Shown here piece after piece: positions 5,801 to 9,748 of a stretch of DNA of 64,000 nt (positions within the stretch are counted from its first letter, which is position 1; every line of letters starts with the position of its first letter). The notes beneath the pieces are model-generated. The model searched no databases, was not told the origin of the DNA, and was given only the letters and a program-made list of their open reading frames with translations. Source of the stretch: Apostichopus japonicus (Eukaryota > Echinodermata > Holothuroidea > Aspidochirotida > Stichopodidae); assembly GCF_037975245.1 (NCBI RefSeq), contig NC_092574.1, forward strand, positions 19,313,713 to 19,377,712. The letters run 5' to 3'. The position numbers and the translations under genes were made by a program.

Positions 5801-8800
5801 CTACCAAATATTTGAAAATCCTTGAAACTGGTAGTCCTTCGGACAACCTTCTCAAATTCCTGAAAATCCAACACTGGTTACCATATAGATTAGACCTCGG
5901 TGTAGTATTGCCCTGTGTTATGACCTAATAGGCATGCATCTTGTGCTTTTACTATAGCCTAGCTTAATAGCTGTTTACACAATGGTGCAACATTACTTAT
6001 ATTGCCTCTAATATTACTGTGAAAATTTAGGCCGTATACCGTATATGGCTTCCCAGCATACTGGTCTAGGAGCTTAGCCCCAGCAAGCACACACCATTAC
6101 TAGCATCTCATGCATAAGGCAATATTTGGAGGGGTTGAGTACACAAGGGATGACAGGAGCATTGTAGGATTACTGAATTGTCTTCAGTTATTGATATGAT
6201 AGCCTTCTTCAAGGTTAATTTTTTTTTTTTTTTGCGAGAAGATTTTCATTAGTAATGCAGGTTCATTGGATTAACTAGTCAAGGCTTACTTCAGATCTTT
6301 AAAAGGACTAAAGAGGGTTTAAATTTGTGATATCCTTTTTTTTCTTTTCTCTATAGATGCAGCGAAATAACTAAAAGTATAAAAGAGATTTGTTAATTAA
6401 TTTAAAACTTTTGTGGAGTAATACCCAGTAGTTCAAGTTAGATTGCCCTAAGGTTAATGATATTCTACAAACCAACTGATGATAATGGTCTTGCGAACCT
6501 TTTGCTTTTAATAATCAGTGGTGAAAAGTATGTAGCAAGCTTCCACAATCCTTTTTTATATATTTTTTTTAAATTGTTTTTATTATTTTTTTCTTTATAG
6601 TCCTTCAGTTACCTCTCTTTATTTGTAGATCTGAAAAGACACAAAAATTCAAAACATGTTTGGATTATATTTTCTCCCCAGCGTGAAAAGGAAGTTTTTC
6701 AAAGAAGAAAAGGCAAAAAAAAAGTGATAATTGATGTCTATCAGACTCATTTATAGTACTGTCTAGTGAGAAATGACAAACTGGATGATTGTGCACAGAA
6801 GGCCAATTCTTAATAGTATTTCCTTTCTTTGTGTCTTTCTACAAAGTATGATCTTTTCATGTACTAACGTTTTGGTCTTTTTTTCCTTGCAGTGGACATT
6901 CATGTCCGTTCGCGGATAGTGACAGTGACGGGAACTCGTGGAGTGCTCAAGAAGAACTTCAAGCACCTTGCTGTGGATATACAGATGGTTGGCAAGAAGC
7001 AGGTTTTGGTTACGAAATGGTTCGGAACAAAGAAACAACTGGCCAGTGTTCGTACTGTTTGCTCTCACATTGAAAACATGATCAAGGGAGTAACTCTGGT
7101 ATGTGAATTTCAGTGATGATCATTACAAGTGAAGGTGTGAATTAGTTATAAAATAAGTTAGAATTCATATTAAATCAAGGTCTTACAAGAAAATGGAAAG
7201 TGGTAGGTAGCTACAGCATGAGTATAAAAACAAGGACTGATTGTATGGTACAAGTTACTTCAACCTCGTATTGATGTAAACATTATCTAAACAATAGTTA
7301 GCTTATGGGCAGGAAGTTATGTTCCCCTACAGCATGACAAACTCTTGTTACACACATACGTGGGGCTTATTGTCACTTGTGTGAAAGCAATGTGGTCGCT
7401 AGGATAGTGGTACTACCATTTGTGACTTAACGGAGCAGTTATTTGCCTTTGGTGATAGCCTCACAGCCAGGTAATACTGATCTGCAATACTTGAGGGTGT
7501 GGGGACCAATGGTCTCTGAAATTTGCAAAAGTAACTTTAAAAAAGTGAAATATATATTTTGAGATCCTTTTATCTGCAAAGGAGATATAGTGAATGCTGT
7601 TTTGACACCACAATCTGAATCTCTGGCCAAGAAACACCCATTTTGAGCATTGTAGCATACTGCAATGAATTTTAGCAGTCTCGAAAACCATGGAAAACAC
7701 ACAGTGGCACTATTTTCACGTTCATTTAGGTATTATGCAATAATTTTGTGGATGGTTATAACTCCCAGATCGCCTGGGTTACAAAGTCAGATTTATCTCT
7801 TGACTTTGTCTTGTGTATATTGGAACAGTTTGATGGGCGGTATTCTGCAAGGTTAGAGAAGCAGTTACATGAGGATATTTTGTCAAAATTTTGTGATATG
7901 GCATGGACTGACCCTTTCAGGAACTACATGCTTGTGCAGTTGCTGCTTCTCTTTTCTATGTACATGATTGTAGAATGGCTGGCTGAGCACTGCTACAAAA
8001 ATTTGTGTCTTCTTCCTCTTGTTTGTTTCATTTTTGGTTGAAACCAACAATGTAAGCCACAAACATCTATAACTTGTTCTGTAACATCTTTTTTTTTTTT
8101 CAAATTTATAAGAGATGAAGTTCAAGTACTATAGATTTTTTTCTCTTTAAGTGCATGCACACAGTCAGCAGTAGTTCATTTTGTAAACATTTCTTGTTTT
8201 CTTCTTTTGATAGTGGTAACCATTTTTCTTCTTTACAGGGTTTCCTGTACAAAATGAGATCAGCCTACGCTCATTTCCCAATCAACTGCAACGTGAAAGA
8301 AGAGGGAACTATGCTGGAGGTCAGGAACTTCCTCGGTGAGAAGCTGATCCGACATGTCAGGATGAACCCAGGTGTCTTGGTATCCCTGTCGCCAAAGCAA
8401 AAAGACGAACTGATCATTCAAGGGAATGACGTGGAACTGGTATCATCGTCTGGTAAGTCTTTCCCCTTCCCACCGTGACCTCCATCCCCCACCCCCCCCA
8501 AATAAAAGGTCACATGACATTGGTCTTTTCTATACTTGTTGATCTATACTTGTTGAATTATCTACCCAATACAGAATATCTCATTGAAGTCAAAACTTTG
8601 TAGTTACATAGATGGATTTGCTTTTCTACACGCTGTAGTTTTTGTGGGATAGTAACACAAGTGTGCACAAGACCTACTCTTGTTGACAGTCATCATCTGT
8701 GAATGAAACTTCCTTGCCAAAATTCCAGGATCCTGTTATTGTCTTTTCCTCCGACATGGCTCAAAGAAAAATGTCTTCTTTGTTTATCTAGTCCCAGTTA

Positions 8801-9748
8801 GAGAGTTGCTAAGTTGTCACCATTGACAAGTTGGACTTTGTGTTTTATTAAAAATTGTGGATTGTTCAGTACATTTGTCGTGCAGTACCTGCTTATCTTT
8901 TCTATGTACATGGTTGTAGAACGGATAGCAAGGGCACTGCTACAAAAAAATCTGTGTCTTCTTCCTCTTGTTTGTTTCATGTTAGTTGAAACCAACAATG
9001 TAAGCCACAAACATATACATTTTCAGGTATACTCAGATGATTGACATTGTAAAATACGTCGGCCAGCCAAATACATTCCACACAGCTGGTTGAAAATCTC
9101 AACTTAAATTACCAGAGCTGTTTAATCCAAACTCAGAAATGGTTATTCGAAGGCAACTCTTTTTCTATCTCTAAATAACATAACTTAAAGAATTGAAATA
9201 CATTTGTATGTTCTGTGAATTTACATGGTAAAATGTCCAAAAACTAACTTTCCTAATGACCATGTTGGTAATTTTCTATTTGGCATGCTCGCTATGCTTT
9301 CACAGCACTCTGCATTTCAGATATCATTAGATGCACGTTTATATAAGAATTTGTCTTTCTTTTCCAAAACACGTTTAGGACATTTCAAAGGAAAACAATT
9401 GACCAATTTTTCAGAGATAAGAGACAAATTTCTGAGCCTTCAAACTGTTGCACAAAATTTGAACACCAAATTATTCTCTGGTACAGAGAGAAAACTTACT
9501 AAAGACATTTCTCATATTAGATTTTGTGTTTAAGTGTCCTTTAATTGGTTGACAGTTCTTGTTTGCATTATCTCTCATTTTGCAGCTGCCTTGATTCAGC
9601 AATCTACCACTGTCAAGAATAAGGACATCAGAAAGTTTTTGGACGGCATCTACGTTTCAGAGAAGACCACGGTGGTTGAACCAGTAATAGAATGAGATGG
9701 GATGTAATACTGAGTGATGTAAAATTATGAAAACAAAAAAACAATAAA
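2826..9748 (+). CDS. RPL9: 60S ribosomal protein L9 (uL6), four coding exons
   Basis: This is uL6 of the large ribosomal subunit, which binds 28S rRNA near the sarcin-ricin loop. Coding exons are 2837-2882 (ATG at 2837), 6893-7098, 8239-8452 and 9586-9695 (TGA). All junctions are GT-AG and in frame, giving 191 aa against about 192 in vertebrates. Diagnostic stretches are [56 protein letters not shown] and [15 protein letters not shown] near the C-terminus. The ATG lies 11 nt inside an exon that starts at an acceptor, so a 5' UTR exon lies upstream. AATAAA at 9743-9748 is a good poly(A) signal 48 nt after the stop. The first mapped intron is 4 kb because of an inserted element. The third and fourth mapped introns (7099-8238 and 8453-9585) each contain a candidate snoRNA. 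Confidence 0.98.
3064..5876. mobile_element. 2.8-kb element with CAGTG terminal inverted repeats in the RPL9 intron
   Basis: The left end reads CAGTGTAGGACTTTCACGG. The right end, reverse-complemented, reads CAGTGTTGGATTTTCAGGA. Both ends are followed inward by related blocks built on ggttgtccttcggacgacc and ggtagtccttcggacaacc. GTTAC occurs directly on both sides (3059-3063 and 5877-5881), as expected of a target-site duplication. The CAGTG start resembles hAT superfamily ends, but hAT usually makes 8-bp duplications. I see no transposase frame inside, so it is probably non-autonomous or a decayed copy. It accounts for most of the length of the intron. Confidence 0.65.
3489..3680 (+). repeat. 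Two direct copies of a ~74-bp unit
   Basis: The units 3489-3562 and 3607-3680 share gctgaatttgtgacgcag, ttataag and tatccatggaatac with few changes. They lie inside the 2.8-kb element. A related but more diverged block containing gaccacatggtagc lies at 5450-5515. Confidence 0.7.
7933..8064 (+). ncRNA. Candidate H/ACA-type snoRNA, copy 1, in the third mapped RPL9 intron
   Basis: The block folds as hairpin-hinge-hairpin-tail. The 5' hairpin closes with GCAGT (7936-7940) against ACTGC (7989-7993), extended by GCT/AGC with one bulge, and has an inner stem TTCTA/TAGAA. The hinge ACAAAA (7995-8000) fits box H (ANANNA). The 3' hairpin pairs TTGTT-T-GTTTC (8019-8029) with GAAAC-C-AACAA (8040-8050). 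ACA (8059-8061) is followed by three bases, as in box ACA. A paralogue in the next intron keeps all of these elements. The lower stem of the 3' hairpin is weak (GTCTT/AAGCC), and no rRNA target was worked out. The alternative is an ordinary duplicated intronic repeat. Confidence 0.5.
8879..9012 (+). ncRNA. Candidate H/ACA-type snoRNA, copy 2, in the fourth mapped RPL9 intron
   Basis: This is a paralogue of the block at 7933-8064. GCAGT (8882-8886) pairs with ACTGC (8936-8940). Inside it, TGC-T-TATC pairs with GATAGCA, and TTCTA with TAGAA. The hinge ACAAAA is at 8942-8947. The 3' hairpin TTGTT-T-GTTTC / GAAAC-C-AACAA is at 8968-8978 and 8988-8998. ACA at 9007-9009 is followed by AAC. Differences from copy 1 fall mainly in loops and in the middle of the 5' arm, while the closing stems, the boxes and the 3' hairpin are unchanged. 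Ribosomal-protein introns are classic snoRNA hosts, which supports the reading. Function is inferred only. Confidence 0.5.
9743..9748 (+). terminator. Poly(A) signal of RPL9
   Basis: AATAAA lies 48 nt after the RPL9 stop codon, in an A-rich short 3' UTR typical of ribosomal-protein genes. Confidence 0.8.

What the first reader, a model, noticed from the sequence alone, without database searches (positions are those of the whole stretch)
7933..9012. Two paralogous H/ACA-like snoRNAs in consecutive RPL9 introns
Blocks 7933-8064 and 8879-9012 are clearly related to each other but not to neighbouring intron sequence. Both fold as hairpin, ANANNA hinge (ACAAAA), hairpin, then ACA plus three bases. 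The closing stem GCAGT/ACTGC and the 3' stem TTGTT-T-GTTTC/GAAAC-C-AACAA are unchanged in both, while differences sit mainly in loops. Length (~133 nt) and host-gene type fit H/ACA snoRNAs. The weak point is the short lower stem of the 3' hairpin.
Basis: partly seen in the sequence, partly recalled or inferred. Interest (0 to 1): 0.72.

Follow-up and report, generated by a model that had tools for sequence, protein, structure and literature searches.

The report
Twin intronic snoRNA genes in RPL9
Two neighbouring introns of an animal ribosomal-protein gene each carry a copy of what looks like a small guide RNA for modifying other RNAs; it is an ordinary case of a well-known kind.

Summary
Two blocks of about 135 nt, 88% identical over 134 aligned nt (blastn E 5e-42), sit in consecutive introns of an RPL9 gene; no third copy was found in the 64-kb window. 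Both carry the H/ACA layout: hairpin, ACAAAA hinge, hairpin, ACA plus three bases. A structural scan of both strands gave 22 candidates; the blocks rank 2nd and 4th. Ranks 1 and 5 overlap sub-threshold Rfam SCARNA3 and SNORA79 matches, though the scan missed the best SNORA79 match.

The blocks reach no Rfam family. The 3' pocket is identical in both copies; the 5' pocket has diverged. No target is proven. The best lead for the 3' pocket is the 18S 3' end, at a site I recall as fly Psi1937, but shuffled pockets pair as well or better in 279 of 400 trials.

Most likely: a pair of intron-encoded H/ACA snoRNAs made by duplication within one host gene, as reported in sponges and chicken. Expression, dyskerin binding and conservation could not be tested.

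The parts
7934..8068 (+). H/ACA snoRNA-like block 1 in RPL9 intron 7099-8238 (end inferred as ACA+3)
7936..7993 (+). block 1, 5' hairpin (GCAGT...ACTGC)
7995..8000 (+). block 1, H box ACAAAA
8003..8062 (+). block 1, 3' hairpin with pocket arms UCUUCUUCCUC and UGUAAGC
8063..8065 (+). block 1, ACA box
8880..9016 (+). H/ACA snoRNA-like block 2 in RPL9 intron 8453-9585 (end inferred as ACA+3)
8882..8940 (+). block 2, 5' hairpin (GCAGT...ACTGC)
8942..8947 (+). block 2, H box ACAAAA
8953..9009 (+). block 2, 3' hairpin; pocket arms identical to block 1
9011..9013 (+). block 2, ACA box
6893..9695 (+). part of the RPL9 host gene: exons 6893-7098, 8239-8452, 9586-9695 (stop included) and the two host introns; further 5' exon(s) upstream were not located

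Best explanation
The two blocks are paralogous box H/ACA snoRNA genes encoded in consecutive introns of RPL9, made by duplication of one into the neighbouring intron. Inferred mechanism: RPL9 is transcribed and spliced; each debranched intron is trimmed by exonucleases to the ends protected by dyskerin, NHP2, NOP10 and GAR1; the RNP pairs a pocket with a target RNA and turns one uridine into pseudouridine. Shown here: paralogy, boxes, two-hairpin fold, host introns, identical 3' pocket. Inferred: processing, proteins, modification. The 3' pocket probably has one shared target; a weak lead is the 18S 3' end (CAU[U]U-AGAGGAAG). The 5' pocket has changed, so in at least one copy it may have a new target or none.
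For: 88% identity over 134 nt, sharp edges, flanks that do not align, no third copy found in the window. H box, ACA plus 3 nt and GCAGT/ACTGC in both. The two copies, folded apart, give the same two hairpins. 49 of 50 cells of 25 stem pairs are paired, without covariation. Ranks 2 and 4 of 22 in a structural scan; ranks 1 and 5 overlap Rfam SCARNA3 and SNORA79 matches, both below their gathering scores. Sense strand of a ribosomal-protein gene, a usual host: 27 fly cytoplasmic RP genes host snoRNAs (passage of PMC2246290). H/ACA RNAs in neighbouring introns of one host are published: sponge RPL13A (passage of PMC3412847); chicken GGgACA4 in PABPC4 introns 6, 7 and 10 (table passage of PMC2653536).
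Against: No Rfam family at gathering score. The weak matches inside the blocks are an sR24 fragment (17.5 bits, E 1.0) and SNORA69 (17.7 bits, E 7.7). No compensatory changes. One of three shuffled windows gave one candidate (-31.7) better than block 1 (-30.4); none beat block 2 (-35.6). The scan missed the best SNORA79 match at 52893-53013, so it is not sensitive. The lower stem of the 3' hairpin is 4-5 bp, and its upper stem ends 12 nt from ACA, short of the usual 14-16 (recalled) unless 1-2 pairs open. Pairing of the pockets with rRNA is mostly no stronger than for shuffled pockets. No host genome is held, so genome copy number and conservation are untested.
Confidence: 0.86

Rival explanations
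1. A short transposable element (MITE or SINE) of which two copies happen to lie in RPL9 introns, with no RNA function.
For: Sharp edges with no shared flank. Block 2 has the word TACATTT within 15 nt on both sides, a possible target-site duplication; 304 of 20000 random positions have a shared flank word of 7 or more.
Against: No third copy found in 64 kb by blastn or nhmmer. No terminal inverted repeat by inspection (no repeat search was run). Two hairpins with H and ACA in register would be a coincidence. Retroposition of a snoRNA would leave the same flanks, so the flank word does not separate the two.
Confidence: 0.07
2. One copy is a working snoRNA and the other a decaying pseudogene. 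This is a special case of the best explanation, not an alternative that adds to it.
For: The 5' hairpins differ at 9 substitutions and one gap in 58 columns; block 1's folds to -17.8 and block 2's to -22.8 kcal/mol, with the base of the upper stem less paired in block 1. Block 2 has the weaker 3' lower stem.
Against: H box, ACA, closing stem, the whole 3' upper stem and both 3' pocket arms are intact in both; each copy folds better than most shuffles.
Confidence: 0.25
3. A conserved intronic DNA or splicing-regulatory element rather than an RNA gene.
For: It lies in introns on the sense strand, and its pyrimidine-rich stretches could bind splicing factors (inference).
Against: The block lies at different distances from the 3' splice site (about 170 and 570 nt) and has the specific H/ACA layout.
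Confidence: 0.04

Closest known systems
H/ACA snoRNA duplicated in the neighbouring intron of RPL13A in sponges (PMC3412847, passages read)
   Same: H/ACA class, ribosomal-protein host, copy in the neighbouring intron, high identity of copies (94% in one sponge, 88% here)
   Different: Host is RPL9; the sequences were not compared; no target assigned here; the word RPL9 does not occur in that paper's main text
Chicken snoRNA paralogs in introns of one host gene, intragenic or cis-duplication (PMC2653536, passages read)
   Same: Duplication within the host gene; structure kept; some paralogs gain or lose a guide function
   Different: Vertebrate; the word RPL9 does not occur in that paper's main text
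Drosophila intronic H/ACA snoRNA clusters (reference titles in PMC2246290; PMC13228274 passages)
   Same: H/ACA RNAs in introns, often of ribosomal-protein genes
   Different: The fly name Psi18S-1937 is recalled; the string 18S-1937 is in no paper of the library, so homology is only a lead
Rfam SNORA79 and SCARNA3 relatives in the same window
   Same: H/ACA RNAs; SNORA79-like RNA occurs as two clear matches plus a weak third
   Different: The RPL9 blocks match neither family

Membership tests
box H/ACA snoRNA | two hairpins joined by a single-stranded hinge | tested here: met
   same fold in both copies; dinucleotide z -1.90 and -2.92
box H/ACA snoRNA | H box ANANNA right after the first hairpin | tested here: met
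   ACAAAA at 7995-8000 and 8942-8947
box H/ACA snoRNA | ACA right after the second hairpin, three bases from the 3' end | tested here: inconclusive
   ACA in place in both; the real 3' end is unknown
box H/ACA snoRNA | guide pocket about 14-16 nt from the H or ACA box (rule recalled) | tested here: inconclusive
   counted by hand on the folds: 5' pocket 16 nt (block 1) and 14 nt (block 2); 3' pocket 12 nt, or 13-14 if one or two U-A pairs open
box H/ACA snoRNA | pocket complementary to a known pseudouridine site | tested here: inconclusive
   no enrichment among 125 sites in recalled rRNA and snRNA; the lead at the 18S 3' end rests on recall
box H/ACA snoRNA | sense orientation in an intron of an expressed host gene | tested here: met
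   RPL9 introns with GT-AG ends; expression itself not tested
box H/ACA snoRNA | stable RNA bound by dyskerin, NHP2, NOP10, GAR1 | not testable with these tools
   no RNA data held
a described Rfam H/ACA family | covariance-model score at or above gathering | tested here: not met
   none in the blocks; SNORA69 17.7 bits against 47
H/ACA scaRNA | CAB box (UGAG, recalled) in a terminal loop | tested here: not met
   read by eye from the sequence: no UGAG in a terminal loop; one UGAG in the right arm of block 1's 5' pocket
MITE or SINE | many dispersed copies | tested here: inconclusive
   none found beyond the two in 64 kb; whole genome not held

The most novel reading that the evidence does not exclude
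A duplicated H/ACA pair whose shared 3' domain guides a lineage-specific pseudouridine at the very 3' end of 18S rRNA (the insect-type CAU[U]UAGAGGAAG; in recalled human 18S that base is C), while the 5' domain of one copy is acquiring a new target; block 2, with TACATTT on both sides, would be the retroposed copy.
Probability: 0.15. Interest if true: 0.4.

Novelty: new member of a known kind. Interest (0 to 1): 0.24.

Why it matters
It adds an H/ACA snoRNA pair that no Rfam family covers, with RPL9 as host, in an animal of unknown species. One pocket is unchanged and the other has changed, so the pair is a clean case for watching a guide RNA gain or lose a target after duplication.

Tried and rejected
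Third copy in the window: none found by blastn or nhmmer. Known Rfam family: none. Host genome: not held.

Target search. Pockets were tested against recalled human rRNA and snRNA sequence. The recalled letters carry the right base at 91 of 91 listed 18S positions, at 24 of 24 and 11 of 11 in two 28S pieces, and at all listed positions tested in most sub-stretches of a third piece, which needs two offsets; two of the five 28S pieces could not be placed (list from PMC6182160, parts 2 and 3 of its main section read). With 60 shuffles for each of seven pocket settings, shuffles reached the observed best in 26, 37, 6, 27, 7, 31 and 58. The two low counts point to U2 position 102 and to a GC-rich 28S stretch, neither of them a listed site. 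Block 2's 5' pocket first seemed to fit LSU GG[U]AAGCAG. That U is yeast 1128 by my recalled 25S, which has U at 11 of 11 tested positions (positions in the table of PMC8307265, passage read), and it is not a listed site; 1124 is. Rejected. Among 125 sites (rRNA sites from the table as far as the recalled pieces reach, snRNA sites all recalled) there was no enrichment: 7 of 57 scored uridines for the 3' pocket, 5 of 64 for block 2's 5' pocket and 20 of 158 for block 1's, against 125 listed in about 1098. Three listed sites are in the top ten of block 1's 5' pocket (U2-15, 5.8S-55, 28S-2495), each with one arm of only 3-4 bp; I leave them open. For the 18S lead, shuffled pockets pair as well or better in 279 of 400. 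It stays a lead because it is this guide's own best hit by 3.5 kcal/mol in that target set and falls on a recalled fly site. Positive control: for the SCARNA3-like RNA the same kind of scoring puts U6 position 40 third, so energy alone is not specific.

Papers: ten searches were answered. Only (3 of 3 listed; 20 of 25 listed) used RPL9 as a term; other listings were capped. Their titles and abstract starts, and the passages opened, name no RPL9-hosted H/ACA RNA. The 14 papers were not opened. The fly snoRNA survey is not held.

Scan candidate 3 (H box 16743) was set aside: Rfam hairpin models score there on both strands, as an inverted repeat would.

Full report
What is there. Window 6893-9695 holds exons of an RPL9 gene (Pfam Ribosomal_L6). 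The best PDB match is chain 4v6w_CH with 266.5 bits, the next 249.7 (60 of 67 matches shown). The list gives no organisms: that 4v6w is the fly ribosome and the next ones vertebrate is recalled. The animal is therefore perhaps an arthropod; the species is unknown. Introns 7099-8238 and 8453-9585 have GT-AG ends, and the three joined exons read through in frame. Each intron carries one copy of a block, 7934-8068 and 8880-9016. They are 88% identical over 134 aligned nt (E 5e-42), their flanks do not align, and no third copy was found in the window.

Structure. Each block is a hairpin closed by GCAGT/ACTGC, the hinge ACAAAA, a second hairpin and ACA plus three bases. Whole-block folding energies have z -1.90 and -2.92 against dinucleotide shuffles (7 and 2 of 200 as good). 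Of 25 stem pairs in four helices, 24 are the same in both copies and one is broken in block 2; none shows a double change, so there is no covariation support. Differences by domain: 9 substitutions and one gap in 58 columns of the 5' hairpin, 3 substitutions and one gap in 59 columns of the 3' hairpin, a 2-nt length difference in the hinge, one substitution in the 5' tail and one after ACA. Both arms of the 3' pocket are identical.

Is it more than chance? I scanned both strands for ANANNA and ACA behind closing hairpins. The scan used no block sequence, but I set its limits after seeing the blocks. It gave 22 candidates in 64 kb (15 plus, 7 minus); block 2 is 2nd and block 1 is 4th. For block 2 it chose an H box three bases off, in the same A run. 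Three shuffled windows, one strand each, gave 8, 17 and 2 candidates with best scores -31.7, -30.1 and -28.6, against -35.6 and -30.4 for the blocks. So block 2 beats all shuffles and block 1 does not. Rank 1 (45446-45583) matches SCARNA3 (32.1 bits, gathering 47; E 9e-5 on 221 nt, 0.026 on the whole window) and weakly fly PsiU6-40 (18.5 bits, E 0.11). Rank 5 (H box 55755) lies inside a SNORA79 match (45.8 bits, gathering 55, E 1.6e-4). Rank 3 looks like an inverted repeat. Four of the top five are thus either Rfam-supported H/ACA candidates or the two blocks. Against the scan: it missed the best SNORA79 match, 52893-53013 (52.3 bits).

Mechanism. Intronic H/ACA RNAs are released by splicing and exonuclease trimming and guide pseudouridylation (established knowledge). 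Nothing here tests processing or modification. The identical 3' pocket suggests a shared target. Its best pairing, in a target set with a recalled insect-type 18S end, is CAU[U]U-AGAGGAAG: 8 Watson-Crick pairs on the left arm, 3 on the right, 13 nt from ACA. This U is the 59th base from the 18S 3' end; with a recalled fly length of 1995 it is U1937, and I recall fly snoRNAs named Psi18S-1937. The name was not confirmed (the papers listed were not opened), and shuffled pockets score as well or better in 279 of 400. In recalled human 18S the base is C, so the site could not be modified there. I rate this target at about 0.2. The 5' pockets gave no target that I would defend.

Origin. Duplication into a neighbouring intron of the same host is published for H/ACA RNAs: sponge RPL13A, copies 94% identical in one species (passage); chicken, where almost all snoRNA paralogs arose by intragenic duplication (passage). 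Block 2 has TACATTT within 15 nt on both sides; 304 of 20000 random positions show a shared word that long. This is compatible with retroposition but weak; block 1 shows nothing alike.

Known or new. The blocks reach no Rfam family. I call them a new member of a known kind. In the two paper searches that used RPL9 as a term and in the passages opened I saw no RPL9-hosted H/ACA RNA; most subscription journals are not held.

Going back over the calls I moved the first intron to 7099-8238 and the stop codon to 9695, added the missed SNORA79 match, the mixed counts and the three listed sites, and lowered confidence from 0.87 to 0.86 for the missed match.

Noticed in passing
window 45446-45583 (+): SCARNA3-like H/ACA RNA in the MYCBP2-like gene region (32.1 bits, below gathering 47; E 0.026 over the window; weakly also fly PsiU6-40). 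Its 3' pocket pairs with U6 at position 40 (6 + 7 bp, third-best target), the site that both families guide, as I recall.
   Followed up: partly
window 52893-53013, 55698-55845 and weakly 57022-57100 (+): SNORA79-like H/ACA RNAs (52.3, 45.8 and 30.9 bits; gathering 55) in the same gene region: two nearly identical copies and one diverged, a second paralogous H/ACA set in one window. Flanking exons were not mapped.
   Followed up: partly
window 43286-60293 (+): RCC1 repeat (ORF 43286-43621) and PHR domain (ORF 59895-60293) downstream of RPL9; the name MYCBP2/highwire-like is recalled from this pair of domains.
   Followed up: partly
window 8870-9022 (+): TACATTT on both sides of block 2, possible target-site duplication (304 of 20000 random flanks share a word as long).
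   Followed up: partly
window 61206-61267 (+): tRNA model match at 29.8 bits that ARAGORN does not call; perhaps a tRNA-derived SINE.
   Followed up: no
window 16729-16814: Hairpin that scores on both strands, likely an inverted repeat or MITE.
   Followed up: no
L003-L009: Contigs filed under prokaryote genomes that carry eukaryotic LSU rRNA (7 of 7) and SSU rRNA (5 of 7): apparent contamination of those assemblies.
   Followed up: partly
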